Shown here: piece after piece, positions 31,189-57,447 of the stretch | How the letters are laid out: the number at the start of each line of letters is the position of its first letter | How positions within the stretch are numbered: the first letter of the stretch is position 1 | From: Plantibacter sp. PA-3-X8 | GTDB taxonomy: Bacteria; Actinomycetota; Actinomycetes; Actinomycetales; Microbacteriaceae | Assembly: GCF_003856975.1 (NCBI RefSeq) | Contig: NZ_CP033107.1 | Location: forward strand, 3,720,001 to 3,784,000 | Reading direction: 5' to 3' | Length of the DNA: 64,000 bases | Program-made: the position numbers and the translations under genes | Notes under the pieces: generated by a model | What the model was told of the DNA's origin: nothing | Databases searched by the model: none | Seen by the model: only the letters and a program-made list of their open reading frames with translations

Positions 31189-31258
31189 GCTTAACTTTGC
31201 TTAACCGCTTGACCACCTTCTCGGCATCCCGCTACGGTAACTGCGTAACCGATTAACC
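31189..31258 (+). promoter_or_regulatory. Putative promoter and two LacI-like operators of the levan locus
   Basis: A promoter TTGACC (31209-31214), 18-base spacer, TACGGT (31233-31238) precedes the GH32 gene. It is bracketed by two related degenerate sites with central CG: TTAACCGCTTGA (31201-31212, overlapping the -35) and GTAACCGATTAACC (31245-31258), centres 45 bases apart, much like the two operators at 52781/52828. An extra GCTTAAC copy lies at 31189. The LacI protein at 36071 is the likely binder. Confidence 0.42.
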
Positions 31259-31277: not shown

Positions 31278-32768
31278 ATGAACCAACGAGGGTTCCACCA
31301 GCCGAACGGCGCATGGGTCGGAGACGTCATCCCCTGGCAGGAGGACGGTGTCTTCCACCTCCTCTACCTGCACGAGTCGCGTCGCGTGCCCAAGATCGGC
31401 ATGCCGTGGCATCGCGTGACCACCCGGAACCTCGTCGACTTCGACGACCTCGGCGAGGCACTGGCGTCGGGCGGACCGTCCGCGCCGGACTTCAACGTCT
31501 ACACGGGCAGCGTCGTCCTGGGCCCCGACCGGGTCCACCACGTCTTCTACACGGGACAGCACCCGGAGCGCCGCGGTGCCGACGGTCTGGCGCTGCAACT
31601 CGTCATGCACGCCGTCAGCACCGACGGCATGCGCACCTGGGAACGCCGGGAGGCCGACACCTTCGGCGCCACCGCAGGATATGAGACCGCCGACTGGCGG
31701 GACCCCTTCGTCTTCTGGGACGAGGACGCGGCCGTCTGGCGGATGCTCATCACCGCCCGGCACGCACACGGCCCGGAACGGCGTCGCGGCGTCATCGCCC
31801 AGTGCACCTCCACGGATCTCTCGACCTGGGAACCCGTCGAGCCGTTCTGGGACCCGCGCCGCTACATCGCCCACGAGTGCCCCGAGGTCTTCCAGTGGGG
31901 CGACTGGTGGTACCTCGTGTACTCCGAGTTCAGTGAGTCGTTCACGACGCGCTACCGGATGTCGCGCACCCTGCACGGACCCTGGATCGTCCCCGAGCAC
32001 GACACGCTCGACGGACGCGCCTACTACGCGGCGAAGTCCGCCGCCCGCGACGGACGCCGGTTCTTCTTCGGCTGGATCGCCTCGCGTGAGGGAGCCCACG
32101 ACGCCGGCGCCTGGCAGTGGGCCGGCACCATGTCGGTCCTCGAAGCGGAGCAGCGTGCCGACGGCACCCTCGCCTTCCATCCGCCCACCGAACTCAGCGA
32201 CACCTTCGCGCCCGCCGACGAGCCGACGGACACCGTCGTCGCCCCGGGCACGGTCCTGAGCGCCCCCGACGGGTACGCCGACGCCCTGTCGGCCGTGGAC
32301 GCACCGAGTTCCTTCCGACTGGTCGCCCGGTTCGACATCGCCCCCGGCACGACCGAGTGCGGCGTCCTCCTCCGGGCGAGCGACGACGGCGACGAGGGCT
32401 ACGTCCTGCGCCTGGAGCCGAAGCGCGACCGCCTCGTGTTCGACCGCTGGCCCCGCTCCAGCACCGGCACGGAGCAGTGGCAGATCTCGGGCGACGTCCC
32501 GTTCGTCGTCGAACTCGAACGCCCCTGCCACCTCGCCCCCGGCTTGCACGAGCTCGAGGTGATCGTCGACGGCGACCTCTGCGTCGCGACCGTCGACGAC
32601 GCGGTCGTCCTCAGCACGCGCCTCTACGACCGACCGAGCGGTCGCGTCGGCATCTTCGTCGGTGAAGGGACCGTCACCGTCGAGGCGTGCACGCTCCTGG
32701 AACGCGACGGCGGCGACTCCGACGACGACCCCACCTCACACCGACTCCTCACCAGCACCACGTCCTGA
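31278..32768 (+). CDS. Divergent GH32-clan glycosidase, cytoplasmic
   Basis: 496 residues. A five-bladed propeller of clan GH-J is indicated by the first strand NGAWVGDVIPW with Asp16 in the nucleophile position (in place of the usual NDPNG), WRDPFVF (transition-state stabiliser) and HECPEVF (acid/base Glu). The C-terminal part, from about residue 350, is a beta-sandwich as in GH32. No signal peptide is present. It opens a seven-gene plus-strand run with ABC transporter, LacI, a standard GH32 and a levan fructotransferase, so an intracellular role on a fructan fragment (inference: perhaps difructose dianhydride) is plausible. AGAGGA precedes the ATG. Confidence 0.82.
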   Translation: MNQRGFHQPNGAWVGDVIPWQEDGVFHLLYLHESRRVPKIGMPWHRVTTRNLVDFDDLGEALASGGPSAPDFNVYTGSVVLGPDRVHHVFYTGQHPERRGADGLALQLVMHAVSTDGMRTWERREADTFGATAGYETADWRDPFVFWDEDAAVWRMLITARHAHGPERRRGVIAQCTSTDLSTWEPVEPFWDPRRYIAHECPEVFQWGDWWYLVYSEFSESFTTRYRMSRTLHGPWIVPEHDTLDGRAYYAAKSAARDGRRFFFGWIASREGAHDAGAWQWAGTMSVLEAEQRADGTLAFHPPTELSDTFAPADEPTDTVVAPGTVLSAPDGYADALSAVDAPSSFRLVARFDIAPGTTECGVLLRASDDGDEGYVLRLEPKRDRLVFDRWPRSSTGTEQWQISGDVPFVVELERPCHLAPGLHELEVIVDGDLCVATVDDAVVLSTRLYDRPSGRVGIFVGEGTVTVEACTLLERDGGDSDDDPTSHRLLTSTTS

Positions 32769-32849
32769 TCCCGACACCACGCTCCGCCCTGCTGCACCAC
32801 CACCCGCACACCCGCACCCACCTGTGATCGATCAACGGAGATTCCGACC

Positions 32850-34211
32850 ATGCCAACCACCGCACGCCCCCGCACCATGCGCCCCACCCGCAGCACCGCC
32901 TTCGTGGCGCTCGTCGCCGCTGCAGCGCTCGCCCTCTCCGGCTGCGCCGGCGGATCGAGTGCCACGGACCCGACCGACGTCGACCCGAAGGGCGACATCG
33001 TCCCCCGCGAGATCTCGTGGCTGCTCTCCCGCCCGGCCGACGGCGGGGTGATCACCGCCATGGAGCAGATAGCCGACGAGTACGCGAAGGACCACCCCGG
33101 CTTCTCGCTCAACCTCATCACGACGCCCGACCGCCCGTCCTACATCCAGAAGTACGAGACCCTCGCGGCCGCGAACAAGCTCCCCGAGCTCTTCGACACC
33201 GACGCGACCCCGTTCGCGCAGAAGCTCGCGAAGCAGGGCCGGATGGTCGACGTCGACCTGCTCCTCGAGGACCTCGGTCTCGCCGACTCCTACCGCGAGG
33301 CGGCGCTCAACTACCAGCGGTTCGACGACGGTTCGCTGTACATGGTGCCGTTCGAGTTCCAGCTGGAGTTCTTCTGGTACAACCGCTCGCTCCTCGAGGA
33401 CGCCGGTGTCACCGTCCCGGCCACGCTCGACGACTTCCCCGCCATGTGCAAGGCGCTCCGCGCCAAGGGCGTCACCCCGATCGCACTCGACGGTCAGGAC
33501 CAGTGGCCGCTCGAGCGCTACATGGCCTACTACCCGTTCCGGATGGCGGGTCCCGAGTACATCCAGGACCTGAAGGCCGGGAAGGCCTCCTTCTCAGACC
33601 CGGCAGGAAAGGCCGCGGCCGAGTGGCTGTACGACCTCGGGCAGGCCGGCTGCTTCCAGGAGGGCTTCTCCTCGACCGGTTACGCGGACGCGCAGGCGCT
33701 CTTCACCTCGGGGAAGGCCGCGGTCTACAACATCGGCACCTGGGAACTCTCGAACCTCGCGACGGATGCGCTCGACCCCGGCGTCCGTGACGCGGTCGGC
33801 ACCTTCACGCTGCCGACCATCGACGGTGCCGTCACCGCCGACAACGAGTACGTCACCCCCTCCGGCATCGGCATGGCCGTGAACGCGAAGACGTACGACC
33901 CGCTCGTCCGCGACTTCCTCGCATTCGCCCTCGAGCGCTACCCGGAGCTCTACGCGGCGACTGGCGCGCTGTCGCCGACGACCTCCGCGCAGACCACCGT
34001 CCCCGCGAACGCGACCGAGCTGTACGCCAGCTCCGTGGCGCAGGCCGACGGCGTCGGACCGGCGATCGCGATGCCCTGGGACACCCAGCTCGACCCGGCC
34101 ACGAACACCCGACTCCAGCAGGAGCTGACCCTGCTCGTGCAGGGCGACATCACGCCGGACGAGTTCATCACGACGATGGATGCGGCCCTCACGGAGAACG
34201 TCGATGACTGA
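32850..34211 (+). CDS. ABC sugar transporter substrate-binding lipoprotein (levan locus)
   Basis: 453 residues with an Arg-rich lead and lipobox LSGC (Cys32). The mature part is a family 1 extracellular solute-binding protein: ITAMEQIADEYAKDHPGFS, YNRSLLEDAGV, TPIALDGQ and GKAAVYNIGTWE are typical for oligosaccharide binders. It captures sugar outside the membrane for the two permeases that follow; its stop overlaps the first permease start (ATGACTGA). A GGAG site precedes the ATG. Ligand probably a fructan-derived di- or oligosaccharide, from context only. Confidence 0.9.
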   Translation: MPTTARPRTMRPTRSTAFVALVAAAALALSGCAGGSSATDPTDVDPKGDIVPREISWLLSRPADGGVITAMEQIADEYAKDHPGFSLNLITTPDRPSYIQKYETLAAANKLPELFDTDATPFAQKLAKQGRMVDVDLLLEDLGLADSYREAALNYQRFDDGSLYMVPFEFQLEFFWYNRSLLEDAGVTVPATLDDFPAMCKALRAKGVTPIALDGQDQWPLERYMAYYPFRMAGPEYIQDLKAGKASFSDPAGKAAAEWLYDLGQAGCFQEGFSSTGYADAQALFTSGKAAVYNIGTWELSNLATDALDPGVRDAVGTFTLPTIDGAVTADNEYVTPSGIGMAVNAKTYDPLVRDFLAFALERYPELYAATGALSPTTSAQTTVPANATELYASSVAQADGVGPAIAMPWDTQLDPATNTRLQQELTLLVQGDITPDEFITTMDAALTENVDD

Positions 34212-35163
34212 GCTCACCCAGAGCGCGGTGGGCGCGGCATCCGCCCGCCCACCGCGGCGGCGGAAGCCGATGTCCACCTCGATGCTGCCCCGCCGGTCGA
34301 CCCTGTCGGTGCTCGTGTTCCTCGTGCCGCCGCTCGTCCTCTACGGTGTCGCGGTGCTCCTGCCGATCGTGCAGTCGCTGTTCCTCAGCCTCTTCTCGTG
34401 GGACGGCATCACGGACATGGCGTTCGTCGGACTCGACAACTACGTGAAGATGCTCACCCGGGACGACGTGTTCTGGACCTCCTTCGGCAACGCCCTCGGC
34501 TACCTCGCGATCTGTCTGGTGCTCCAGCTCGGCGGCGCGCTCCTCGTCGCCGGGCTGCTCACGGCCCTCCCCCGGGCCCGCGAGCTCGTCAAGACGCTCT
34601 ACCTCCTGCCGGCCGTCATCTCCACGGTCGCGATCGCCATCCTGTTCCAGCGGCTGTACGCGCTCGAACCGGTCGGGCTGATCAACCAGCTGCTCGCGTG
34701 GGTCGGCCTCGGCGACCTCCAGACGGCCTGGCTGTCGAACGTGCAGACCGTCCTCGCGGCCGTGTCGATCCCGGAGGGCTGGCGGTTCACCGGCCTGTAC
34801 ATGCTCATCATCTACGCCGCCCTCATGGCCGTACCCCGCGACCTCGAGGAGGCCGCCAGGCTGGACGGCGCCTCCTGGTGGCAGATCTTCTGGCGGATCC
34901 GCTTCCCGTACATCCGGCCGGTGTGGATCACGACGACGGTCATGGCGACGACCTTCGCGCTCCGCGGCTTCGACATCCCGTACCTGCTGACGAACGGCGG
35001 GCCCGGTCAGTCGTCCGAGCTGCTGACCACGTACATGTACAAGACGGCGTTCGTCCACACGGACTACGGCTACGCCAGCGCGATCTCCATGTTCATCGTC
35101 GTCGAGTGTCTCGTCGCCGTCGGCCTCATCTTCCTGCTGCTCCGACGGAAGGACAAGTCATGA
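34204..35163 (+). CDS. ABC sugar permease, MalF/UgpA type
   Basis: 319 residues from the ATG at 34204, which overlaps the binding-protein stop by eight bases. Six membrane helices; the EAA loop reads EEAARLDGASWWQIFWRI, with the Gly that docks to the ATPase. Together with the next permease it forms the membrane channel of the levan-locus importer. The following gene begins at the ATGA junction 35160-35163. Confidence 0.9.
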   Translation: MTELTQSAVGAASARPPRRRKPMSTSMLPRRSTLSVLVFLVPPLVLYGVAVLLPIVQSLFLSLFSWDGITDMAFVGLDNYVKMLTRDDVFWTSFGNALGYLAICLVLQLGGALLVAGLLTALPRARELVKTLYLLPAVISTVAIAILFQRLYALEPVGLINQLLAWVGLGDLQTAWLSNVQTVLAAVSIPEGWRFTGLYMLIIYAALMAVPRDLEEAARLDGASWWQIFWRIRFPYIRPVWITTTVMATTFALRGFDIPYLLTNGGPGQSSELLTTYMYKTAFVHTDYGYASAISMFIVVECLVAVGLIFLLLRRKDKS

Positions 35164-36074
35164 CCGCCACCCTCCCCGCCCGGCCGACCGAACACGTCGC
35201 GCCCCCGGTAGCGCCGACACCGAAGCGGAAACCCCGGCACACCCCGCGCGTGCGGGTGCAGCGGACGATCCTCACCGTGACCGTCGTCGCGATCGTGATC
35301 GTCCAGGTCTACCCGCTCGTCTGGTTGCTGCTCACGAGCTTCCGGACGGCGGCGGATTTCGCCGGTGGCAACCCCTTCGCGTTACCGTCCGAGTGGACGC
35401 TCGAGAACTACGCGCGGGCGTTCTCGACCGGCAACCTCGGGCTGAACATCGTCAACAGCCTGATCGTCACCCTCGGGTCGAGTGTCCTGATCGTCATCGC
35501 CGGCATGATGGCGGCGTACGCGCTCCAGGTCCTCGGGTTCCGGTTCAGCGGGCTCGTCCGCGGCCTGTTCCTCCTCGGCATCATCGTGCCCGTGCAGATC
35601 GCCCTCGTCCCGCTGTTCATCGACTACTCGCAGGTCGGCTTGCTCGACACCCACCTGTCGATGATCATCCCGCTGGCGGCGTTCGCCCTGCCGATGGCGG
35701 TGTACCTGTTCTCCTCGTTCTACGAGTACATCCCGAGGGAGATGTACGAGGCCGCGTCGCTCGACGGGGCGGGTCCGTACCGGATCTTCGGCCAGATCAC
35801 CTTCCCGCTCTCGGTCAACACGATCATCACCGTCGTGCTCGTCAACAGCATCTTCATCTGGAACGACTTCATCTTCGCGAACACCTTCGTGCTCTCGGAC
35901 GGATTGAAGACCATCCCGCTCGGCCTGCAGAACTACATCGGGGCGATGGGGAACACTGATTGGACGGCGACGTTCGCCGCCGTCTGCGTCACGGTCACAC
36001 CGCTGCTGCTGGTGTTCCTCGTGTTGAACAAAGCGATGATCAGCGGCCTCGAGAGCGGAGCGACCAAGGGATGA
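35160..36074 (+). CDS. ABC sugar permease, MalG/UgpE type
   Basis: 304 residues, ATG overlapping the previous stop. Pro/Arg-rich lead, six membrane helices, EAA loop YEAASLDGAGPYRIFGQI, and helix WNDFIFANTF typical for MalG-like subunits. Its stop overlaps the start of the LacI gene (ATGA, 36071-36074), an unusual tight coupling of transporter and repressor. No ATPase gene exists in the cluster. Confidence 0.9.
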   Translation: MTATLPARPTEHVAPPVAPTPKRKPRHTPRVRVQRTILTVTVVAIVIVQVYPLVWLLLTSFRTAADFAGGNPFALPSEWTLENYARAFSTGNLGLNIVNSLIVTLGSSVLIVIAGMMAAYALQVLGFRFSGLVRGLFLLGIIVPVQIALVPLFIDYSQVGLLDTHLSMIIPLAAFALPMAVYLFSSFYEYIPREMYEAASLDGAGPYRIFGQITFPLSVNTIITVVLVNSIFIWNDFIFANTFVLSDGLKTIPLGLQNYIGAMGNTDWTATFAAVCVTVTPLLLVFLVLNKAMISGLESGATKG

Positions 36075-37111
36075 GCAGCACCGACCAGCCGAAGCCCGGC
36101 GCGGACCACCCGAAGAACACCTCGGGCATCACGATGCGCGACGTCGCGAAGGCCGCCGGCGTCTCCGTGGCGACCGTCTCGCACGTCGTCAACGACAAGC
36201 CGGGGTCGCGGATCGGCGAGGACGCGAAACGTCGGGTGCACGAGGCGGTGGCGGAGCTCGGCTACCGGCCGAACGCCCTCGCAAAGACGCTGTCCCAGGG
36301 GCACTCACGGTTCATCGGCCTCGTCGCCGACGCGATCGCGACGACCCCGTTCGCCGGCCAGATCATCCACGGCGCCCAGGACGAGGCGTGGCGCCACGGC
36401 TACGTCCTGCTCGTCGCCAACACCGACGGCAACACGGCCGCCGAGGTGGAGGCCATCGCGATGATGCTCGAGCACCAGGTCCGCGGGATCCTCTACTCGA
36501 CCTGGTTCCACCACGAGATCACCGTGCCGGATGCGCTCCTCCAGACCGACACCGTGCTCGTCGACTGCTACGCCGCCGGCAGCGGGCTCCCGGCCGTCGT
36601 CCCCGATGAGGAGCAGGGCGGGCGGACCGCGACCGAGGCGCTGCTCGCGGCCGGTCACCGACGGATCGCCTTCGTCAACACGACGACCCCCTCACCGGCA
36701 CAGACCGGCCGGCTCGCCGGGTACCGCTCGGCGTTGCAGGCGGCGGGGGTGGCCTTCGACGACGCCCTCGTGTTCCCGGCCTCACCGGAGCAGGAGGGCG
36801 GATACGCGGCGACCGCCGAGGTCGTCGACTCGGGCGCCACCGCGGTGTTCTGCCACAACGACCGTGTCGCGATGGGACTCTACGACGGACTGCGGGAGCA
36901 CGGACTGCGGATCCCCGACGACATGGCCGTCATGGGGTTCGACAACCAGGACGTCATCGCCGCCCACCTCCGGCCACCGCTGTCGACGGTCGCCCTCCCC
37001 CACTACGAGCTCGGGGCTGCCGGTGTCCGTCGGCTGCTCGGTCTCGACGCCGCGCTGCCCGCCGGGCCGCAGCTCATCGCCTGCCCGGCCGTCCCGCGGC
37101 ACTCCGTCTGA
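36071..37111 (+). CDS. LacI-family regulator embedded in the levan operon
   Basis: 346 residues; HTH MRDVAKAAGVSVATVSHVVN at about residue 21, hinge NALAKTLSQG, effector domain with FIGLVADAIATTPFAG and the C-terminal region LSTVALPHYELG. It is translationally coupled to the transporter (ATGA) and followed after 10 bases by GH32, so the repressor is made within the operon it probably controls, giving negative feedback. Binding candidates are the sites around 31205 and 31250. Confidence 0.88.
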   Translation: MSSTDQPKPGADHPKNTSGITMRDVAKAAGVSVATVSHVVNDKPGSRIGEDAKRRVHEAVAELGYRPNALAKTLSQGHSRFIGLVADAIATTPFAGQIIHGAQDEAWRHGYVLLVANTDGNTAAEVEAIAMMLEHQVRGILYSTWFHHEITVPDALLQTDTVLVDCYAAGSGLPAVVPDEEQGGRTATEALLAAGHRRIAFVNTTTPSPAQTGRLAGYRSALQAAGVAFDDALVFPASPEQEGGYAATAEVVDSGATAVFCHNDRVAMGLYDGLREHGLRIPDDMAVMGFDNQDVIAAHLRPPLSTVALPHYELGAAGVRRLLGLDAALPAGPQLIACPAVPRHSV

Positions 37112-37121
37112 GGGCGCGACC

Positions 37122-38564
37122 GTGCACGACGAACAGCACGCCCTTCCACGGCCCCGCTTCCACCTGACGCCCGAGCGGAACTGGATGAACGACCCGAACG
37201 GCTTGGTCTTCCACCGCGGGCGGTGGCACGCGTTCTTCCAGTACAACCCGGAGGGTGGCGACTGGGGCAACATGAGCTGGGGTCACGCCTCGAGCGTCGA
37301 CCTGCAGCACTGGGAGGAGCATCCGGTCGCCCTGCGGTACACCACCGAGGAGCAGGTGTACTCGGGATCGGTGGTCGCCGCGGGTCCCGGCGGACGCCTC
37401 ACGGCGTACTACACGAGCGTGTCCACCGACGGTCGGCAGGCGCAGTCCCGGGCGACCAGTGACGACGACGGGCTCACCTGGCAGCGCGACCCGGAGAACC
37501 CGATCCTCGACCGCGGCTCGCACGCGTTCCGCGACCCGAAGATCATCCGGTACGAGGACGCCGCGGGCTTCCGTTGGATCATGCTGACGGTGGAAGCCGT
37601 GGAGCGTCAGGTCCTCGTGTACTCCTCCACCGACCTCCGAACCTGGGAGCACGTCAGCACCGTCGGTCCGTTCGGTCCCACCGGCGTCGTGTGGGAGTGC
37701 CCCGACCTCATCCAGCTCGCGGTCGACGGCCGCCCGGACGAGCTCCGGTGGGTCCTGCTCCTCAGCACCAACCCGATCGGCGACGCGCAGGACCCGGACG
37801 GATCGTCGATGAGCTATCTCGTCGGCGACTTCGACGGCACGGTGTTCACGCCTGAGCGGGCCGAGCTGCAGCGGCTCGACCACGGTCGGGACTTCTACGC
37901 GGCGGTCGGGTTCGACGGCGCTCCGGACGGCGAAGCGGTGATCCTCGGCTGGATGGGCAATTGGCGCTACGCGGCCGACCTCCCCGCCTCGCCGTGGCGG
38001 GGCGCGATGTCGCTCCCCAGACGCCTCTCCTTGACCACGGTCGACGGCCGGCCGCGACTCGTGCAGGAGCCGCCGGCCTTCGTCCGGGAACGACTGGCCG
38101 CGATCGAACCGACGACCGTCGCCCTGTCCTCGGACGCCGTCGACCTGGCGCTCGATGGCGACGGCGTGGTCGAGTTGCGCTGGGATCCGTCGATCACGGG
38201 TGAGCTGCGGCTCCGACTGACGGCCGACACCGGCGGAGCGGTCCTCATCGTCCACGACCCGGCGGCGGCGTCACTCTCCGTCGCCCGGTCGGGCGGTGCC
38301 ATGGACACGGTGCACCCCGACTTCGCCTCGACGAGCATCGTCCCGCTCGCCGGCGACCGTCCGGCGCGGCTCCTCCTCAGCCTCGACGGCCCGCTGCTCG
38401 AGCTGTTCGTCGACGGCGGTCTCGCCACCGTCTCCGACCTCGTCCTCCTGGGGAGCGGACGACCGACGCTGACCCTCGCGAGCGAACGCGCCAGTCCCGT
38501 CTCGGTGGCCGTCGCCGTCCTCGACCGGGTGCCAGCCACCGACCAGGCGCACGCGCCCGCCTGA
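37122..38564 (+). CDS. GH32 beta-fructosidase, intracellular
   Basis: 480 residues, GTG start ten bases after the LacI stop. All three catalytic motifs are intact: WMNDPNG with nucleophile Asp24, FRDPK with the stabilising Asp, and WECPD with the acid/base Glu; FFQYNP and WGHASS are also standard. The C-terminal beta-sandwich extends from about residue 320, including ELFVDGG near the end. Without a signal peptide it should act in the cytoplasm on imported fructosides (levanbiose, sucrose or fructo-oligosaccharides), releasing fructose. Confidence 0.9.
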   Translation: MHDEQHALPRPRFHLTPERNWMNDPNGLVFHRGRWHAFFQYNPEGGDWGNMSWGHASSVDLQHWEEHPVALRYTTEEQVYSGSVVAAGPGGRLTAYYTSVSTDGRQAQSRATSDDDGLTWQRDPENPILDRGSHAFRDPKIIRYEDAAGFRWIMLTVEAVERQVLVYSSTDLRTWEHVSTVGPFGPTGVVWECPDLIQLAVDGRPDELRWVLLLSTNPIGDAQDPDGSSMSYLVGDFDGTVFTPERAELQRLDHGRDFYAAVGFDGAPDGEAVILGWMGNWRYAADLPASPWRGAMSLPRRLSLTTVDGRPRLVQEPPAFVRERLAAIEPTTVALSSDAVDLALDGDGVVELRWDPSITGELRLRLTADTGGAVLIVHDPAAASLSVARSGGAMDTVHPDFASTSIVPLAGDRPARLLLSLDGPLLELFVDGGLATVSDLVLLGSGRPTLTLASERASPVSVAVAVLDRVPATDQAHAPA

Positions 38565-38646
38565 GCAGTCCTCCACCGCACGATCCAGCACCATCCCCGC
38601 CACGGGTGCCTTCGGCGCGCCCGCGGCACCGACGAAAGGAACCGCA

Positions 38647-40224
38647 ATGACGCACGACCTCTCCCGCCGGACCGTCCTCCAGGGCGCCGGCCTCGGGGCG
38701 CTCGCCCTGTTCGCGAGTGCCGGCACACCCCTCGCCGCACAGGCGCAGACCACCGCACAGGCGCAGGCCTCGCTCAGATCGGTGTTCCACATGACGCCAC
38801 CGTCGGGGTGGCTCTGCGACCCGCAACGACCGGTGTTCACGAACGGCGCCTACCAGCTGTACTACCTGCACTCCGGCCAGAACAACGGCCCGGGCGGTTG
38901 GGATCACGCGACGACGACCGACAGCGTCGCCTTCACCCACCACGGGACGGTCATGCCGCTGCAGCCGGACTTCCCGGTGTGGTCGGGATCCGCCGTCGTC
39001 GACACCGCGAACACCGCCGGTTTCGGGGCGGGCGCGGTCATCGCCCTCGCGACGCAGCCTACGGACGGCGTCCGGAAGTACCAGGAGCAGTACCTCTACT
39101 GGTCGACGGACGGCGGCTTCACGTTCACGATGCTCCCCGACCCGGTGATCGTGAACACCGACGGACGTGCGGCCCAGACCACGGCGGAGATCGAGAACGC
39201 CGAGTGGTTCCGGGACCCGAAGGTCCACTGGGACGCGGCCAGGAACGAATGGGTGTGCGTCATCGGTCGGGCGCGCTACGCGGCCTTCTACACCTCGCCC
39301 GATCTCACGACCTGGCAGCTGCAGCACAACTTCGACTTCCCGAACCACGACCTCGGCGGCATCGAGTGCCCGGACCTGTTCCAGATGCGAGCGGGTGACG
39401 GCAGCTGGCACTGGGTGCTGGGCGCCAGCATGGACGCCTACTCGATCGGCCTGCCGATGACCTACGCCTACTGGACGGGCACCTGGGACGGGACGCGGTT
39501 CACGGCCGACGACCTCACCCCGCAGTGGTTGGACTGGGGCTGGGACTGGTACGCCGCCGTCACCTGGCAGAAGGCGGAGTCGCCCGACGACCGCCGGCTC
39601 GCGATCGCCTGGATGAACAACTGGAAGTACGCGGCCCGCGACGTCCCCACCGACGCCTCGGACGGCTACAACGGCCAGAACTCCGTCGTCCGGGAGCTAC
39701 GACTCGAGGCGCAGTCCGGTGGTCGGTACAGCCTGCTCAGCTCACCCGTGGACGCCCTGGCCGGGTATGCGACCTCGACCGTCTCCCTCCCGGACCAGAC
39801 GGTCACCGGGAGCGCCGTCCTGCCCTGGAGCGGCCGAGCGTACGAGATCGAGCTCGACCTCACCTGGGACACCGCGTCCAACGTCGGTCTCTCCGTCGGG
39901 CGCTCGGCGGACGGCTCCCGCCACACCAACATCGGGAAGGCCGGGGCCGAGCTCTACGTCGACCGCTCACCGTCCGACCTGGCCGGCTTCTCGCTGCAGC
40001 CGTACACGCGGGCCGCAGCACCGATCGACGCGGCTGCACGCTCGGTCCACCTGCGGGTCTTCGTCGACACCCAGAGCGTCGAGGTCTTCGTCAACGCCGG
40101 TCACACCGTCGTCTCGCAGCAGGTGCACTTCGCCGAGGGCGACACGGGGATCTCGCTCTACACCGATGGCGGCCCACTGACCGCCTCGGGGATCACGATC
40201 CGCGAGTTCGGCACGGCGATCTGA
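38647..40224 (+). CDS. lftA: Secreted levan fructotransferase (DFA IV-forming), GH32
   Basis: 525 residues with a Tat signal (SRRTVLQGAGLGALALFASA) ending near residue 35. The mature enzyme is GH32 but with the first motif changed to WLCDPQRP (Asp58 as nucleophile), then WFRDPK and GIECPD. Segments such as YQLYYLHSGQNNGPGGWDHA (in parts QLYYLHS and GPGGWDHA), AIAWMNNWKYAARDVPTD and HLRVFVDTQSVEVFVN match the Arthrobacter levan fructotransferase group, which degrades levan to di-D-fructose-2,6':6,2'-dianhydride (DFA IV). A close alternative is a levanbiose-producing levanase. It is the only secreted hydrolase of the cluster. GAAAGGA precedes the ATG; an 82-base gap separates it from the GH32 gene. 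Confidence 0.85.
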   Translation: MTHDLSRRTVLQGAGLGALALFASAGTPLAAQAQTTAQAQASLRSVFHMTPPSGWLCDPQRPVFTNGAYQLYYLHSGQNNGPGGWDHATTTDSVAFTHHGTVMPLQPDFPVWSGSAVVDTANTAGFGAGAVIALATQPTDGVRKYQEQYLYWSTDGGFTFTMLPDPVIVNTDGRAAQTTAEIENAEWFRDPKVHWDAARNEWVCVIGRARYAAFYTSPDLTTWQLQHNFDFPNHDLGGIECPDLFQMRAGDGSWHWVLGASMDAYSIGLPMTYAYWTGTWDGTRFTADDLTPQWLDWGWDWYAAVTWQKAESPDDRRLAIAWMNNWKYAARDVPTDASDGYNGQNSVVRELRLEAQSGGRYSLLSSPVDALAGYATSTVSLPDQTVTGSAVLPWSGRAYEIELDLTWDTASNVGLSVGRSADGSRHTNIGKAGAELYVDRSPSDLAGFSLQPYTRAAAPIDAAARSVHLRVFVDTQSVEVFVNAGHTVVSQQVHFAEGDTGISLYTDGGPLTASGITIREFGTAI

Positions 40225-51720: not shown

Positions 51721-52761
51721 TCAACCGGCGTCGGTCGACACCGCGGCGATGAGCGAGTCGCGCTCGATGATCGGCATCGTGACCAGCTCGTGCCCGAGGG
51801 CGTGCTGACCGAGGAGCATCGAGGCTCCGAGCGCGCCGATCTCCTGGTAGGGCAGCCGCGCGGTGGTGAGGCCCGGGCGCAGGTAGCCGGCGAGGATCTC
51901 GTCGTCGAAGGAGACGACGGAGACGTCCTGCGGGATCCGACGCCCCTGTTCGAGCAGCACCTGGTAGGCACCGAAGGCGACGCCGTCGTTCGCGGCGAGG
52001 ATCGCCGTGACGTCCGGGTGGCGCTCGAGGAGCGTCGCCGTCGCCTCGTAACCGGGTTCCGGCTGCCACTCGACGATGTCGACCCGAGCAGGTTCGATCC
52101 CGGCCTCCGCGAACGCCGCGGCGATGCCCGCGAAGCGGAGTGCCACCGTCGCCGTCTGTCGCGGATCGTTGATGACGTCCTGCGGCAGGTCGCCGACCAC
52201 GCCGATCCGTCGGTGACCCGCGTCGACGAGCCGCTTCGCGACCGCGTACCCGGCAGCTCGTTCGTCGGGCAGGACGTTCGCGTGTCCCGAGGAGGACGCT
52301 CCGTTGAGCACCACGACGGGGACACCGGTCGAGGTGGCGGGGAGGTCGATGAGGCGGGCGCCGAGGAGGCCGATGAGGATGCCGTCGACGCGGTGGTCGA
52401 TCATCGTCTCGAAGGCGCGGGCGAGGCCGCCCTCGATCCCCTCGGTCTCCGCGATGAGCATCGTGTGGTCGTGGGTCTTCGACACCTCGAGCGCGCCGCC
52501 GATGAGCCCTGAGGCGTGCCGGGTGAGCGTGACCTCGTCGGAGATGAACCCGATCGTCCTGGTCTTCCCGCGGCGCAGCACCTGGGCCGCGGGGTTCGGG
52601 CGGTAGTCGAGCTCCGCCGCGGCGGCGCGGACCCGCTCGACGGCGTCCGCGGACAGCCGGGAACCGGGGCGGTCGTTCATGATCATGCTCACCGCGGCCT
52701 TGGACATGCCCGCGCGCTCCGCGACGTCCGCCAGGGTCGTGCGGCGGCGTTGCGTGGACAT
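51721..52761 (-). CDS. LacI-family regulator of the fructoside locus
   Basis: 346 residues: HTH LADVAERAGMSKAAVSMIMND, hinge NPAAQVLRRGKTRTIG and the PBP-like effector domain (HANVLPDERAAGYAVAKRLV, in parts NVLPDERAAGYAV). It is divergent from the ABC transporter/GH32 operon and separated by two near-identical operators, so autoregulation together with repression of that operon is likely, the effector being a fructose-containing sugar. Confidence 0.88.
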   Translation of the reverse strand: MSTQRRRTTLADVAERAGMSKAAVSMIMNDRPGSRLSADAVERVRAAAAELDYRPNPAAQVLRRGKTRTIGFISDEVTLTRHASGLIGGALEVSKTHDHTMLIAETEGIEGGLARAFETMIDHRVDGILIGLLGARLIDLPATSTGVPVVVLNGASSSGHANVLPDERAAGYAVAKRLVDAGHRRIGVVGDLPQDVINDPRQTATVALRFAGIAAAFAEAGIEPARVDIVEWQPEPGYEATATLLERHPDVTAILAANDGVAFGAYQVLLEQGRRIPQDVSVVSFDDEILAGYLRPGLTTARLPYQEIGALGASMLLGQHALGHELVTMPIIERDSLIAAVSTDAG

Positions 52762-52780
52762 GACACTCCCTCGTGCGGTT

Positions 52781-52798
52781 TGCTGAATCAGTTCAGCA
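52781..52798. promoter_or_regulatory. LacI operator O1
   Basis: TGCTGAA-TCAG-TTCAGCA, perfect seven-base arms, 20 bases upstream of the lacI start on the minus strand. The second copy lies 47 bases away centre to centre. Between them TATGTT at 52817 is a plausible -10 box for the transporter operon. Confidence 0.78.
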
Positions 52799-52827
52799 TA
52801 TCGCGCGGAGCTGTGTTATGTTTCGAC

Positions 52828-52845
52828 TGCTGAATCCGTTCAGCA
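52828..52845. promoter_or_regulatory. LacI operator O2
   Basis: TGCTGAA-TCCG-TTCAGCA, same arms as O1. It sits six bases after the TATGTT -10 candidate, i.e. at the transcription start region of the transporter operon, so binding would block initiation; both sites together may form a loop. Confidence 0.8.
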
Positions 52846-52911
52846 CCTCCATTCACGGCTCATCGTCCGCGCCCTGCGAACGGTCGGCCCCGATTTCGCA
52901 GGAGCAACAAC

Positions 52912-54294
52912 GTGGTTGATCTGAGTCGCAGGGCGGCACTCGCCCTGCTCGGTCTCGGTCTGGCGGGCACGGCCATCTCCTGGCCGCGCCTCACCGGCGG
53001 AGACATCCCCGGCCGAGGTGACGACGCCCTCACCGTCGCCCTCTTCGGCACCGCCCAGGACGCCGCCGCCCGGCAGTCGCTCGTGGACGGCTTCCAGAAG
53101 CTGCACCCCGACATCCCCGTCCGGATCATCGCGATCCAGGGCCAGGACTGGGGCAACTTCTTCGCCAAGATCCTCACGATGGTCGCGGCCGGCACCCCGC
53201 CGGACATCGTGTCGGTCGCCACGGAGGGCACCCAGCTGTTCGCCGAGCGCCTCGCCCACCCGATCGACGAGTACGTGCAGCGCGACGCCGCCGAACTGCA
53301 GGAGTACTTCGACGACGTGAACCCCTCGCTCATCGAGTCGTTCATGTACAAGGGCAATCTGTTCCAACTGCCGGACAACTTCAACGCGGCGAACATGTAC
53401 TACAACACCTCCGCGTTCGAGCGGGCCGGCCTCGAGCGTCCGCGTGACGACTGGTCGGTCGACGACTTCTTCGCCGTCGGCCGCACCATGCAGGCCAGCG
53501 CCCCCGGATCGTTCCTCCCCTACTTCTGGAACAACCGGCTCTGGGGCGGTGTCGTGCCCTGGTTGTACATCAACGACACGAGCTTCCTCACCGAGGAGAA
53601 GGCACCCGGCGGCGACTGGATGTGGTCCAAGTTCTACCCGGACGAGACCCCTCGTGGTGGTGGGTACCTGTGGGAGAACGCCGACGCGCTGAGCGACCGC
53701 ACCGTCGAGAGCTTCGAAGTCCTGCAGCGCATGGTCTCCGAAGGGATCGCCGCGAACCCCGCCCAGGGCGGCGGCAACGAGCTCGTCTCGCTCTTCTCCC
53801 GCGGCTCGGTCGGCATGACGCCGGCCGGCGGGTTCTGGGTCAAGGGACTCAACGACGCCGGCCTCGGCGACGACGAGTACGACGTCACCTACTTCCCGAA
53901 GATGCGCGGACAACGCCACCAGTTCGGAGCCGGCGGCTACGCGATGATGCAGACCTCCGAACGCAAGGACGAGGCGTGGGAGTGGATGAAGTACTGCATC
54001 TCCGTCGAGGGCATGTCGATCGCGCACAGCCAGCCCGACTCGTCGCTGCCCCGGCGCTCACTCAACGCCCAGCTGTACGGCGGTGACATCGGACCGAAGC
54101 ACTGGGAGGTCTTCTACGACACCCTCGACCGGTTCCCGACGACCGGACCGATGCCCGCGCCGCCCCAGCAGGCCGCCGTCGAGTCGGCCCTCATCAAGAA
54201 CGTGGTCGGCGCGATCACGAACGGCCCGAACGGCGTCCGCCGCGGGCTCGAGACGATGCAGCGGGACCTCGAGCTCGCGCTGAAGGGACGATGA
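52912..54294 (+). CDS. ABC sugar transporter substrate-binding protein (fructoside locus), Tat-like signal
   Basis: 460 residues, GTG start with AGGAG upstream. The N-terminus has SRRAALALLGLGLAG, a twin-arginine-like signal, but no Cys lipobox follows, unusual for a Gram-positive solute-binding protein; the hydrophobic segment could stay as a membrane anchor. The mature domain is family 1: LVDGFQKLHPDIPVRII (in parts), DIVSVATEGTQLFAE, NMYYNTSAFERAGL and GYAMMQTS. It delivers a fructoside to the two permeases; stop overlaps the next start (ATGATG). Confidence 0.86.
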   Translation: MVDLSRRAALALLGLGLAGTAISWPRLTGGDIPGRGDDALTVALFGTAQDAAARQSLVDGFQKLHPDIPVRIIAIQGQDWGNFFAKILTMVAAGTPPDIVSVATEGTQLFAERLAHPIDEYVQRDAAELQEYFDDVNPSLIESFMYKGNLFQLPDNFNAANMYYNTSAFERAGLERPRDDWSVDDFFAVGRTMQASAPGSFLPYFWNNRLWGGVVPWLYINDTSFLTEEKAPGGDWMWSKFYPDETPRGGGYLWENADALSDRTVESFEVLQRMVSEGIAANPAQGGGNELVSLFSRGSVGMTPAGGFWVKGLNDAGLGDDEYDVTYFPKMRGQRHQFGAGGYAMMQTSERKDEAWEWMKYCISVEGMSIAHSQPDSSLPRRSLNAQLYGGDIGPKHWEVFYDTLDRFPTTGPMPAPPQQAAVESALIKNVVGAITNGPNGVRRGLETMQRDLELALKGR

Positions 54295-55244
54295 TGGCAC
54301 TGCAGTCACCGACGGCGACCCGGGCACTGGTCGTCCCGCCCGAGGCGAAGACCGGCCGCCGACGTCCCGCGCCGCGCGGGAGCCGCCTGCTCGTCTGGGT
54401 GTTCCTCGCCCCCACGCTGATCGGCCTCGGACTCTTCAGCTTCGTCCCGATCATCGGGTCGTTCGTCCTCGCCTTCTTCCGGTGGGACATCATCTCGGCA
54501 CCCGAGTTCGTCGGCGTCGGCAACTTCGTCGACCTCGCCGCCAACCCCACGGTGCGCGTGTCCTTCCTGAACACGGTCGGCTTCGTGGTCGTGGCGGTGA
54601 CGCTCCAGCTCGCCGTCGCGCTCCTGCTCGCGATCCTCGTGCAGTCGCGGATGCCGGAATGGCTGCGTACCTTCTTCCGCTCCGCGCTGTTCTTCCCGTT
54701 GGTGCTGTCGGCCGCATCCGTGTCGCTCGTGATGTCGTACCTGTTCAACCAGGAGTTCGGCCTCGTCAACGAGTTCCTCGGGCTCTTCGGCGTCGGGAAC
54801 ATCGGCTGGCTGACGACCGGGTTCGGGGCGAAGATCGTCGTCCTCCTCGTCTACGTGTGGCAGAACTTCGGCTTCACCTTCCTGCTGTTCATCGGCGGAC
54901 TCGCCGCGATCCCGCGCGAGGTCTACGAGGCGTCGTCGCTCGACGGCGCGTACGGCTGGAGCCAGTTCCGGAACGTCACCCTGCCCCTCGTGAGCCCCAC
55001 CATGCTCGTCGCGTCCGTCATGGCCATCATCAGCGCCCTGCAGATCTTCGACCAGCCGTACGTCCTCACGCGAGGTGGGCCGGGAGACGACACCCGTACC
55101 GCGGTGATGGTGATCTACGAGTCCGCATTCCAGCAGCTCGACTTCGGTCTCGCCGCAGCGATCGGCATCGTGCTGACGCTCCTGATCATGCTCGTCACCG
55201 CCGCACAGTTCCGGCTGAGCAAGCGTTTCGTCTTCTACGGATGA
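54291..55244 (+). CDS. ABC sugar permease 1 (fructoside locus)
   Basis: 317 residues, ATG overlapping the binding-protein stop. Six membrane helices, EAA loop YEASSLDGAYGWSQFRNV and the FDQPYVLTRGGPG periplasmic region typical of MalF/UgpA-like subunits. Coupled by an ATGA junction to permease 2. Confidence 0.9.
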   Translation: MMALQSPTATRALVVPPEAKTGRRRPAPRGSRLLVWVFLAPTLIGLGLFSFVPIIGSFVLAFFRWDIISAPEFVGVGNFVDLAANPTVRVSFLNTVGFVVVAVTLQLAVALLLAILVQSRMPEWLRTFFRSALFFPLVLSAASVSLVMSYLFNQEFGLVNEFLGLFGVGNIGWLTTGFGAKIVVLLVYVWQNFGFTFLLFIGGLAAIPREVYEASSLDGAYGWSQFRNVTLPLVSPTMLVASVMAIISALQIFDQPYVLTRGGPGDDTRTAVMVIYESAFQQLDFGLAAAIGIVLTLLIMLVTAAQFRLSKRFVFYG

Positions 55245-56086
55245 GGTCCCAGATGTCCATCGCAGCAGTCACCCCCGACTCGTCACGCCGCCGACTCGCC
55301 ACGGCCGGGAAGTTCCTCGTCCTCGTCATCGCCGCGTTCCTCACACTCGCGCCCGTCGTGTGGACGCTCATCACGGCGCTCACCCCCGCGAACGTCGACA
55401 CCGGGCAGACCGAGTTCGGCCCGGGCGCGTTCATCGACGTCTTCCAGAAGATCCCGATCCTGCTCTACACGTGGAACAGCGCGCTGGTGACGCTCCTCAT
55501 CGCGGCCGGGCAGATGCTCAGCGCGGCGATGGCCGGCTACGTCTTCGCGCGCTTCGACTTCGGCGGCAAGCGCATCCTGTTCGGCCTCATCCTCGCCACG
55601 ATGATGGTGCCGATGCAGGTGACGATCGTCCCCGTGTTCATGCTCATCCGCGGCATGGGCCTGTCGGACACGCTCCTCGCGCTCATCATCCCGATGATCC
55701 CGACGGCGTTCGGCACGTTCCTCATGCGGCAGTACTTCATGGGGTTGCCGCCGGAGCTCGCCGAGGCGGCGCAGATCGACGGGGCGGGACCGTGGAAGAT
55801 CTTCTTCCGCATCTACCTGCCGCTCGCCGCCCCGGGCCTCGCGATCGTCGGCATCCTCGCGTTCAACTACCACTGGAACGAGTTCTTCCGGCCATTGATC
55901 CTGACGATCAGCGAGCAGAACTTCACCCTCCCGCTCGGGCTCGTGACCCTGCAGGGCAACCTCGGTACCGGGTCGGTCGCAACCGTCCTCGCCGGTGTCG
56001 TCCTGTCCATGATCCCGGCTGCGCTGGTCTTCGTCTTCGGCCAGAAGCCGCTGCGCGAAGGGCTCACCGCCGGCGTCAGCAAGTGA
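55241..56086 (+). CDS. ABC sugar permease 2 (fructoside locus)
   Basis: 281 residues from the ATG at 55241 that overlaps the previous stop; an ATG at 55253 with GAGG six bases before it is the alternative. Six membrane helices and the EAA loop AEAAQIDGAGPWKIFFRI identify the MalG/UgpE type; WNEFFRPLILT is standard. It pairs with permease 1. As in the levan locus no ATPase gene accompanies it. Confidence 0.9.
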   Translation: MRSQMSIAAVTPDSSRRRLATAGKFLVLVIAAFLTLAPVVWTLITALTPANVDTGQTEFGPGAFIDVFQKIPILLYTWNSALVTLLIAAGQMLSAAMAGYVFARFDFGGKRILFGLILATMMVPMQVTIVPVFMLIRGMGLSDTLLALIIPMIPTAFGTFLMRQYFMGLPPELAEAAQIDGAGPWKIFFRIYLPLAAPGLAIVGILAFNYHWNEFFRPLILTISEQNFTLPLGLVTLQGNLGTGSVATVLAGVVLSMIPAALVFVFGQKPLREGLTAGVSK

Positions 56087-56139
56087 CCAGCACCACCGCC
56101 CTCCCCTCGATCCGACTGATCTCGAACCGAAAGGAAGCC

Positions 56140-57447
56140 ATGACCGGCCTCCACGCAACGCACGTCCTCGACCGCGGCTTCCCGCTGCTGCACCCGCGAC
56201 CCGAGGCCGGGTGGTTGAACGATCCGAACGGCATCATGTTCGTCGACGGTCGCTGGCACGTCTTCTTCCAATACAACCCGGGGTCGGCCCGGCACGAGGA
56301 CATCCACTGGGGTCACGTGAGCTCGCCGGACCTGCTCGCCTGGGAGGAGCACCCGGTGGCCCTGGCACCCCGCCCGGGCACCACCGACGGCTTCGGCTGT
56401 TGGAGCGGCGTCGGGGTCGTCGACCAGGGCCGGCCGTCCGTCGTCTACTCGGGCGCGCGTGACCGGCACGGGTTCTCGGAGGTCGTCGTCGTCCACGGCT
56501 CGGCGGATGCGCAGGACTGGACCGGCGAACGCATCGTCGCTGCCGGGCTCCCCGCCGATGAGCGTGTGACGATGGTGCGCGACCCGTTCCTCTTCGAGCT
56601 GGGTGGGCGCCGCTGGGCGATCCAGGGCGCCGGCCGCTCCGACGTCGGTGGCGCACTACTCCTCTACGGCGTCGACGACCTCGACGCCTGGACCGAGGAG
56701 GGATACCTGCTGACGGCCGAGGCACCGGTCGTCTCGGAGCTCGCTCCGTGCGAAGGGTGGGAGTGCCCGCAGCTCGTGCGGGTCGGCGACGACTGGGTGC
56801 TGCTGGTGTCGCTGTGGCTCGATGGCCAGCCGCACCGCGGGGTGGCCTGGGTCCTCGGGTCGATGGAGCTCGACGAGGCCACCGGGCGACCCGTGTTCAG
56901 CGCCCGCCGGACCGGCATCATCGACGAGGGGTCGAGCTTCTACGCACCGCAGGCCGTGCAGTCCGACGGCTCGGACGGACAGTCGGAGCGGGTGCTGCTC
57001 TGGGGCTGGGCGCAGGAGATCGCTCCCGATGGCGTGCGCGGCCGGACGCAGGCGGACACCGACGAGCAGGGTTGGTCGGGCATGCTGACGTTCCCGCGCG
57101 AGCTCGTGGTCCGGGGCGACGAGGTCGAGCTGATCCCGGCGCGGGAGCTGACGGGACTCCGGGCCGAGGTCATCGGCGCGGCGGAACTCCCTGATCAGGC
57201 GGAGGTGCGACTCACGGGCGCAGGCGCGGCCTCCCTCGAGCTGTCGGGTTCGGACACGCAGCTGATCTGGCACGGCGAGCTGGCCGACGGGGACGAGGTC
57301 CGGATCCTCATCGACGCGTCGATCGTCGAGATCCACCACACCGGGCACCCCGCTCGGACGTTCCGGGCGTATCCGGCCGACGCCGAGCGGTACGCCGTGC
57401 GACACGACGCGACCGTGCGAGCCGAGGCCTGGTCCCTGGAGGTCTGA
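56140..57447 (+). CDS. GH32 beta-fructosidase/sucrase of the fructoside locus
   Basis: 435 residues, AAGGAAG before the ATG, no signal peptide. Motifs: WLNDPNG (Asp28 nucleophile), VRDPF (stabiliser, with Phe in place of Lys), WECPQ with the acid/base Glu, and FFQYNP. The C-terminal domain is short (about 100 residues), ending EIHHTGHPARTF-like. It resembles cytoplasmic sucrases and fructo-oligosaccharide hydrolases and would release fructose for the PfkB kinase at 50766. It is the last gene of the operon. Confidence 0.88.
   Translation: MTGLHATHVLDRGFPLLHPRPEAGWLNDPNGIMFVDGRWHVFFQYNPGSARHEDIHWGHVSSPDLLAWEEHPVALAPRPGTTDGFGCWSGVGVVDQGRPSVVYSGARDRHGFSEVVVVHGSADAQDWTGERIVAAGLPADERVTMVRDPFLFELGGRRWAIQGAGRSDVGGALLLYGVDDLDAWTEEGYLLTAEAPVVSELAPCEGWECPQLVRVGDDWVLLVSLWLDGQPHRGVAWVLGSMELDEATGRPVFSARRTGIIDEGSSFYAPQAVQSDGSDGQSERVLLWGWAQEIAPDGVRGRTQADTDEQGWSGMLTFPRELVVRGDEVELIPARELTGLRAEVIGAAELPDQAEVRLTGAGAASLELSGSDTQLIWHGELADGDEVRILIDASIVEIHHTGHPARTFRAYPADAERYAVRHDATVRAEAWSLEV

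What the first reader, a model, noticed from the sequence alone, without database searches (positions are those of the whole stretch)
31278..40224. Levan-to-difructose-dianhydride utilisation locus
The order is divergent GH32, ABC importer, LacI, intracellular GH32 and Tat-exported levan fructotransferase. A secreted LFTase would convert levan to DFA IV, a dianhydride not cut by usual beta-fructosidases. The ABC importer and two different intracellular GH32-clan enzymes then form a complete route for it, and the unusual enzyme at 31278 is a candidate DFA IV hydrolase. I am not aware of a characterised pathway with this set of genes.
Basis: partly seen in the sequence, partly recalled or inferred. 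Interest (0 to 1): 0.75.

Follow-up and report, generated by a model that had tools for sequence, protein, structure and literature searches.

The report
Operon for eating cyclic levan sugar
A plant-associated actinobacterium carries one operon that appears to turn the polymer levan into an unusual ring-shaped disaccharide outside the cell, import it and split it inside; the likely ring-opening enzyme is a new candidate that still has to be tested.

Summary
The gene set is real: 31278-40224 is a + strand operon of seven genes: A, divergent GH32 without signal peptide; B-D, ABC importer; E, LacI; F, exo-type GH32; G, Tat-signal levan fructotransferase (LFTase), 82% identical to the solved Pseudarthrobacter ureafaciens enzyme. 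Two LacI-type operators precede A. Of 58 LFTase loci with 9 kb on both sides, 57 carry A-B-C-D-E (16 genera), but only 23 carry F. So A, not F, is LFTase's constant intracellular partner. A keeps the GH32 triad; by sequence and fold its nearest solved relative is the endo-levanase BT1760, well ahead of the exo-enzymes, and it lacks the exo-type NDPNG/Gln signature. That suits DFA IV, whose fructoses are both O6-substituted like internal levan residues. Best reading: LFTase makes DFA IV outside, the importer takes it up, A opens it to levanbiose, and A, F or a housekeeping fructosidase finishes. LFTase comes and goes around the A-E core, suggesting scavengers. No activity was measured; A might instead cut imported levan oligosaccharides. 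No DFA IV hydrolase turned up in the open-licence papers searched; DFA III and DFA I pathways are precedents.

The parts
31201..31212 (+). LacI-type operator 1, TTAACCGCTTGA (palindromic consensus TTAANCGNTTAA)
   Evidence: One mismatch to the pattern. Pairs of such sites (up to 2 mismatches each) 40-47 bp apart lie upstream of A in 58 of 64 LFTase loci that have A, against 2 of 280 upstream regions of B-F and 0 of 3200 base shuffles.
31245..31256 (+). LacI-type operator 2, GTAACCGATTAA, 44 bp after operator 1
   Evidence: With at most 1 mismatch the pattern has 5 palindromic places in the genome: these two, two at 982045/982112 (67 bp apart) and one at 439250.
31278..32768 (+). Gene A: divergent GH32 (496 aa), no signal peptide seen, catalytic D16, D142, E200; proposed DFA IV hydrolase (DFA IV to levanbiose)
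32850..34211 (+). Gene B: solute-binding lipoprotein of an ABC sugar importer
   Evidence: PF01547 E 1.2e-29; lipobox LSGC (read); 57 of 58 LFTase loci.
34204..35163 (+). Gene C: ABC importer permease 1
   Evidence: PF00528 E 2.9e-20; 57 of 58 loci.
35160..36074 (+). Gene D: ABC importer permease 2 (no ATPase gene among the seven)
   Evidence: PF00528 E 1.7e-16; 57 of 58 loci.
36071..37111 (+). Gene E: LacI-family regulator
   Evidence: PF00356 and PF13377; 57 of 58 loci.
37122..38564 (+). Gene F: intracellular exo-type GH32 (480 aa, GTG start, NDPNG...FFQ), proposed levanbiose / fructo-oligosaccharide hydrolase, optional
   Evidence: PF00251 E 1.4e-82; best PDB hit exo-inulinase 8i12; NDPNG and Gln kept in 31 of 31 F of 500 bits or more; F in 23 of 58 loci.
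38647..40224 (+). Gene G: levan fructotransferase (LFTase, GH32; D58, D190, E240) with a Tat-type leader, proposed levan to DFA IV
   Evidence: 82% identical to 4fff P. ureafaciens LFTase over 481 residues; twin-arginine leader (read).

Best explanation
The operon is a three-stage 'cyclise, import, open' pathway for levan. Stage 1 (inferred from 82% identity to a solved LFTase): G is exported by Tat and turns levan into DFA IV, the 2,6':6,2' cyclic dianhydride of two fructoses, plus some short levan. Stage 2 (inferred from genes and conservation): lipoprotein B with permeases C and D, and an ATPase from elsewhere, import DFA IV. Stage 3 (inferred): A, a cytoplasmic GH32 enzyme with an endo-levanase-like catalytic site, opens one of the two beta-2,6 bonds and gives levanbiose; A itself, F, or a housekeeping fructosidase then gives two fructoses. 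E is a LacI-type repressor acting on two tandem operators before A (inferred). Why A: in DFA IV each fructose carries a substituent on O6, as inside a levan chain; exo-fructosidases have a funnel for one terminal fructose, while an endo-levanase binds further fructoses on the minus side of the cut. Shown here: anatomy, conservation, operator-like sites, intact triad, endo-levanase-like predicted fold. Not shown: any activity, binding, transport or regulation. Relatives with A-E but no LFTase are read as scavengers of DFA IV or levan fragments made by neighbours.
For: G is 396/481 identical to 4fff; 4ffg is that enzyme with DFA-IV (title). A-B-C-D-E in 57 of 58 LFTase loci with 9 kb both sides, F in 23. 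In 398 family genomes A in 34, LFTase in 18, both in 16 (Fisher 2e-17); in 396 order genomes, with A at 49% identity or more and LFTase at 57% or more, 18, 10 and 7 (1e-8). A stands beside LFTase also where the importer is not the orthologous one (L233). Operator pairs before A in 58 of 64 loci, control 2 of 280. Triad invariant in 48 homologs. Nearest solved structure BT1760 by a wide margin. GDxIP and Leu in 82 of 82 A rows, Leu also in 78 of 78 readable G, NDPNG and Gln in 31 of 31 F; BT1760 and LevB1 also carry Leu there (alignments). 11 of 25 A+/LFTase- genomes have just two GH32 genes of 60 bits or more, both in the locus (counted). Precedents for DFA III and DFA I: PMC8605356 section 15, PMC11538131 passages.
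Against: No activity, binding or growth data. A occurs without LFTase in 25 of the 47 genomes put on the tree, so A's substrate need not come from an LFTase. The best structural relative, BT1760, is an endo-levanase that does not cut levanbiose (PMC6560043 section 8), and two BT1760 residues that held the tail of MES at +1 (Gln239, Arg244) have no counterpart in A in the pairwise alignment. The 57 of 58 come from related genera, so they are fewer independent events. LFTase presence is only weakly clustered on the A tree (12 changes against 15.9 in shuffles). The role of the exo-type Asn and Gln in holding O6, and LFTase's use of an O6-substituted fructose at -1, are recalled, not from a call.
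Confidence: 0.64

Rival explanations
1. A is an intracellular levan-oligosaccharide hydrolase (levantriose and longer, perhaps levanbiose), and the importer carries linear levan oligosaccharides left by LFTase or by other organisms. DFA IV is then not the main imported sugar, or is opened by another enzyme.
For: The nearest solved relative of A is a true endo-levanase on linear levan. A occurs without LFTase in 25 of 47 genomes. A-like genes of 33-42% identity stand in importer-type loci with no LFTase match over 40 bits in 6 of 7 loci looked at.
Against: A-E accompany LFTase in 57 of 58 loci, and LFTase is reported to turn levan into DFA IV with 73-76% yield (PMC6245366 passages). BT1760 does not cut levanbiose. 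Something must open DFA IV, and among the genes scored no other intracellular hydrolase is constant.
Confidence: 0.23
2. F or a housekeeping beta-fructosidase opens DFA IV, and A has a side role such as levanbiose cleavage or hydrolysis of branched remnants.
For: F lies directly before G in the window and shares the operon. LFTase genomes often have further GH32 genes elsewhere.
Against: F is absent from 35 of 58 LFTase loci and keeps the full exo signature in 31 of 31; exo-enzymes have a funnel for a single sugar (PMC6560043 section 9).
Confidence: 0.08
3. G is not DFA IV-forming here but behaves as an endo-levanase or levanbiohydrolase, so the locus is an ordinary levan oligosaccharide operon.
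For: The wider family mixes activities: endo-levanase LevB1 matches G with 360 bits.
Against: 82% identity to the characterised LFTase; the window's G reads CDPQRP, as do 76 of 78 readable G, whereas LevB1 and the Bacillota relatives read NDPQ.
Confidence: 0.05

Closest known systems
DFA III pathway of Arthrobacter and Blautia (GH91 DFA III hydrolase, GH32 beta-fructofuranosidase, ABC importer; GH91 inulin fructotransferase outside in Arthrobacter)
   Same: Cyclic disaccharide of two fructoses, ABC import proposed, intracellular opening to a linear disaccharide, GH32 finishing step (PMC8605356 section 15, PMC11538131 passages).
   Different: Here the polymer is levan, both the forming enzyme and the proposed opening enzyme are GH32, and the dianhydride is the all-beta 2,6':6,2' form.
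DFA I cluster of Bifidobacterium dentium / Streptomyces davawensis (GH172 synthase/hydrolase, GH32, LacI, ABC importer)
   Same: LacI + ABC importer + cyclic-disaccharide hydrolase + GH32 (PMC8605356 passages).
   Different: No GH172 match in this genome; different linkage and hydrolase family.
Levan fructotransferase of Pseudarthrobacter (Arthrobacter) ureafaciens, 4FFF-4FFI
   Same: Gene G, 82% identical.
   Different: In what I could read only the secreted enzyme is characterised; a downstream pathway was not described there.
Bacteroides BT1760 endo-levanase and its levan utilisome
   Different: BT1760 is a secreted surface endo-enzyme; A has no visible signal peptide, travels with an ABC importer and lacks counterparts of BT1760's Gln239/Arg244.

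Membership tests
Levan fructotransferase (EC 4.2.2.16, GH32), gene G | GH32 N and C domains with D, RDP, EC(P) triad | tested here: met
   PF00251 and PF08244; D58, D190, E240
Levan fructotransferase (EC 4.2.2.16, GH32), gene G | Close kinship to a characterised LFTase rather than to endo-levanases | tested here: met
   945 bits to 4fff against 360 bits to LevB1; 82% identity
Levan fructotransferase (EC 4.2.2.16, GH32), gene G | Export | tested here: inconclusive
   Twin-arginine leader read in the sequence; export itself cannot be tested here
Levan fructotransferase (EC 4.2.2.16, GH32), gene G | Forms DFA IV from levan | not testable with these tools
   Needs an assay
GH32, gene A | Five-bladed propeller plus beta-sandwich with catalytic D, D, E | tested here: met
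   predicted fold aligned over 446 residues with GH32 structures
BT1760-type endo-levanase, gene A | Sequence and fold nearest to BT1760 | tested here: met
BT1760-type endo-levanase, gene A | Secreted or surface enzyme with access to polymer | tested here: not met
   Nucleophile at residue 16; in 66 of 80 ortholog frames the first ATG lies 15 residues before it, at most 44 in any; 4 have no ATG before it
BT1760-type endo-levanase, gene A | Residues Gln239 and Arg244 (named in PMC6560043) | tested here: not met
   Phe218 and a gap lie opposite them in the pairwise alignment (read by eye)
BT1760-type endo-levanase, gene A | Random internal cleavage of levan | not testable with these tools
   Needs an assay
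Exo-acting beta-fructosidase / invertase, gene A | NDPNG motif and Gln of F-F/Y-Q | tested here: not met
   GDxIP and Leu in 82 of 82 rows
DFA IV hydrolase, gene A | Hydrolyses DFA IV | not testable with these tools
   No assay; no described family found to compare with
Three-stage cyclic disaccharide pathway (DFA III / DFA I type) | Extracellular forming enzyme, importer, intracellular hydrolase in one locus | tested here: inconclusive
   First two by homology, the third is a candidate only
GH172 (DUF2961) DFA I hydrolase locus | PF11175 gene | tested here: not met
   0 matches in the window's genome
GH91 DFA III locus | GH91 gene | not tested
   No GH91 model was searched; none of the seven operon genes matches anything but the families

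The most novel reading that the evidence does not exclude
Gene A founds a missing enzyme class, a GH32 DFA IV hydrolase: an endo-levanase catalytic site moved into the cytoplasm and tuned to a cyclic disaccharide. With its importer and operators it forms a widespread private-sugar system of Actinomycetota in which LFTase carriers are producers and LFTase-less relatives are scavengers, with a second, differently assembled cassette (single-domain GH32-like A2 plus other permeases and LacI) beside LFTase-like genes that lack A.
Probability: 0.5. Interest if true: 0.72.

Novelty: new variant of a known kind. Interest (0 to 1): 0.6.

Why it matters
LFTase has been studied since the 1980s as a way to make DFA IV, a sugar reported as nondigestible, yet in the papers I could search no enzyme is described that takes DFA IV apart. 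A conserved candidate would close the levan branch of the dianhydride pathways, give a tool for DFA IV assay and synthesis, and make a question testable: does turning a shared polymer into a ring that few can open privatise it, and are LFTase-less neighbours cheaters?

Tried and rejected
Considered and set aside: (1) 'divergent' as orientation: all seven genes are on +. (2) F as key enzyme: absent from 35 of 58 loci. (3) Levansucrase in the same genome as levan source: no PF02435 match, so levan would come from others or plants. (4) GH172 involvement: no match in this genome. (5) The importer as proof of the sugar: B has only general sugar-binding relatives in the PDB (best 4g68, 130 bits). 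(6) Plasmid mobility: 7 plasmid records at 33-50% identity to A; not informative for the close group. (7) Promoter and terminator scans found nothing. (8) Paper searches for a DFA IV hydrolase or pathway: (0 papers); only open-licence PMC papers are held, and the LFTase structure paper (PMC3438955) is not. (9) The Foldseek 'pdb' search never ran; the pdb_via second look did. (10) Placing DFA IV in the model was not possible; no coordinates lie in the Python box. (11), on the exo-type Asn/Gln, found nothing relevant. (12) looked for statements on who digests DFA IV and gave only 'nondigestible' in an abstract.

Rows dropped before counts: of 76 loci, 6 with no LFTase of 390 bits (Halobacillus, Paenibacillus, Calditrichaceae; no A-E cluster scored there), then 12 with under 9 kb on one side (A seen in 7 of these 12; in the other 5 the contig ends on the side where the cluster would continue). 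Thresholds were set. The one exception of 58, L150, has an LFTase match to residues 130-519 only. One search counts rows of loci L064-L152 with A at 250, F at 500 and G at 450 bits or more; a few genomes are in it twice (L075/L141, L077/L136, L079/L139 have equal contig lengths). The genome samples and 59/60 share some genomes. In one search a locus is 'diverging' if A and G lie on opposite strands; in one, L132, they do not share a spacer. In one search rows are best-matching stop-free pieces with X letters removed; L216 is a long branch and L215 is short.
Full report
WHAT IS THERE. The window is bases 3720001-3784000 of a 4.08 Mb single-contig genome; the nearest named relatives of its proteins are from Plantibacter. 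Between 31278 and 40224 lie seven + strand genes with short gaps or overlaps: A (GH32, 496 aa), B-C-D (solute-binding lipoprotein and two permeases, no ATPase), E (LacI), F (GH32, 480 aa), G (GH32 with a twin-arginine leader). Families are from Pfam and NCBIfam. The genome has no levansucrase match and no GH172 match.

THE SECRETED ENZYME. G matches the solved levan fructotransferase of Pseudarthrobacter ureafaciens over residues 45-525 with 945 bits, 396 of 481 residues identical; next is endo-levanase LevB1 with 360 bits. One of the LFTase entries holds DFA-IV, one levanbiose (titles). Around the nucleophile G reads CDPQRP; so do 76 of 78 readable G rows of the first loci (the other two read CDV and CDG). 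Four further LFTases of 502-855 bits read SDPQ, second copies in three loci read GDPQ, and the four Bacillota relatives in the table read NDPQ like LevB1. That this G makes DFA IV is an inference from close homology.

THE COMPANION THAT STAYS. A scan of public genomes with G gave 76 loci. Scored with the seven window proteins, 70 hold an LFTase of at least 390 bits and 58 of these have 9 kb on both sides. A, B, C, D and E are each present in 57 of these 58, and all five together in 57; F in only 23. By record titles the 57 come from 16 genera: Plantibacter, Microbacterium, Agromyces, Clavibacter, Subtercola, Arthrobacter, Paenarthrobacter, Pseudarthrobacter, Glutamicibacter, Cellulosimicrobium, Oerskovia, Sanguibacter, Isoptericola, Brachybacterium, Actinomyces and Nocardioides. 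Of the 70, two layouts dominate: A-B-C-D-E-F-G collinear (19) and E-D-C-B-A diverging from G without F (30). The exception, L150 (Actinomyces oris), has an LFTase match to residues 130-519 only. The scan chose loci by G alone, so the constancy of A is not built in; but the genera are related and the independent events are fewer than 57.

GENOMES NOT CHOSEN BY EITHER GENE. In 398 genomes of the family, A (E to 1e-120) is in 34, LFTase in 18, both in 16 (Fisher p 2e-17). In 396 genomes of the order the calls' own tallies at 1e-60 are 30 and 23; counting A at 49% identity or more and LFTase at 57% or more they are 18 and 10, with 7 in common (p 1e-8). The two samples share some genomes. Where A and LFTase lie on one contig they are within about 10 kb. 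In L233 A stands beside an LFTase although importer and regulator are not the orthologous ones, so the link is A to LFTase and not just a frozen operon.

REGULATION. Two LacI-type palindromes, TTAACCGCTTGA at 31201 and GTAACCGATTAA at 31245, precede A. The pattern TTAANCGNTTAA with at most one mismatch has five palindromic places in the genome: these two, two at 982045/982112 and one at 439250. Pairs 40-47 bp apart with at most two mismatches per site occur upstream of A in 58 of 64 LFTase loci (27 of 32 with A and G on one strand, 31 of 32 on opposite strands), against 2 of 280 upstream regions of B-F in the same loci and 0 of 3200 base shuffles. Loci without a pair are L104, L119, L136, L137, L141 and L149. 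In 20 of the 32 opposite-strand loci a second pair, usually sharing one site with the first, lies in the same stretch and could serve G; that E binds these sites is inferred.

WHY THAT FITS DFA IV. DFA IV is di-beta-D-fructofuranose 2,6':6,2'-dianhydride (PMC6245366 passages). Each fructose is thus linked through C2 and substituted on O6, like an internal levan residue. A retaining enzyme able to open it must accept an O6-substituted fructose at -1, which an endo-levanase does and an exo-fructosidase should not. This is inference; the role of the exo-type Asn and Gln in holding O6 is recalled. Against a plain endo-levanase reading stand the cytoplasmic place of A and the lack of counterparts of BT1760's Gln239 and Arg244 (read by eye).

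PRODUCERS AND SCAVENGERS. On a tree of 47 A proteins from the two genome samples, 22 with and 25 without LFTase, the label changes 12 times, at least 8 forced by well-supported branches; shuffled labels need 15.9 on average, so it is weakly clustered. LFTase thus seems to be gained or lost repeatedly around A. Of the 25 LFTase-less carriers, 11 have just two GH32 genes of 60 bits or more, both in the locus (counted), and in the 7 of these whose F was printed I see no signal peptide. Such cells appear unable to cut fructan outside with a GH32 enzyme and must take up something small made by others. This fits DFA IV, but also levan oligosaccharides. The other 14 carry more GH32 genes, some perhaps secreted; this was not examined.

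A SECOND CASSETTE. The five genomes with an LFTase-like gene but no A (G417, G504, G255, G165, G179) all have, within about 5 kb of it, a single-domain GH32-like protein, A2, with permease-like and LacI-like neighbours. Among the other 47 genomes A2 is in 10 (6 of 22 with LFTase and A, 4 of 25 with A alone; Fisher 0.001). The LFTase-like genes of the five are not clean LFTases: NDPQ in two, CDVQ and CDGQ in two, and the N-terminal part not matched in one. Three loci carry A and A2 side by side (L078, L142, L236). The window's own genome has an A2 gene with SBP, permease and LacI matches, without LFTase, at 2773116.

COMPARISON WITH THE KNOWN. PMC8605356 (section 15 read; passages) describes three-stage pathways via DFA III and DFA I and names none for DFA IV there. 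PMC11538131 (passages) shows the DFA III gene cluster of Blautia. Searches for a DFA IV hydrolase or pathway found none, in a library limited to open-licence papers. The present locus works like these pathways, but its opening enzyme is only a candidate.

VERDICT. Observation confirmed. Interpretation partly supported and sharpened: A is the core partner, F is optional. Confidence in A as DFA IV hydrolase within this pathway about 0.64 (set at 0.66 before the fact check, lowered slightly for the weak clustering of LFTase on the A tree and the SDPQ and GDPQ variants of the LFTase motif); the main rival is a cytoplasmic levan-oligosaccharide hydrolase.

Noticed in passing
window 51721-57447: Second carbohydrate cluster: LacI on -, then SBP, permease(s) and a GH32 enzyme without a Pfam C-terminal domain match on +.
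   Followed up: partly
L260 (G000:C1:2764000-2783900), A2 at G000:C1:2773116-2774042 on -: Own genome also carries an A2 gene with SBP-, permease- and LacI-like neighbours far from the LFTase.
   Followed up: partly
L250, L251, L081, L082, L083: The five genomes with an LFTase-like gene but no A all have A2 near it; A2 too has Leu in place of the exo-type Gln.
   Followed up: partly
L245 (G212:C1:624000-643900), about 7.1-11.3 kb: A GH172 (DUF2961, DFA I hydrolase family) gene sits between an LFTase-like gene and an A-like gene of 42% identity: a possible mixed dianhydride cluster.
   Followed up: partly
L239-L242: Small genomes of one genus (code f4/g10, probably Bifidobacterium, a guess from size and family) have an A-like gene (33-37%) next to a LacI with about 390 bits to E and permeases that are only distant to C and D.
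   Followed up: no
L079, L080: Two loci carry a second LFTase-like gene with GDPQ instead of CDPQ on the other side of the cluster; L079 has the contig length of Brachybacterium sp. SGAir0954.
   Followed up: no
window 59960-63079: Large frame (1039 aa) with five DUF7507 repeats.
   Followed up: no
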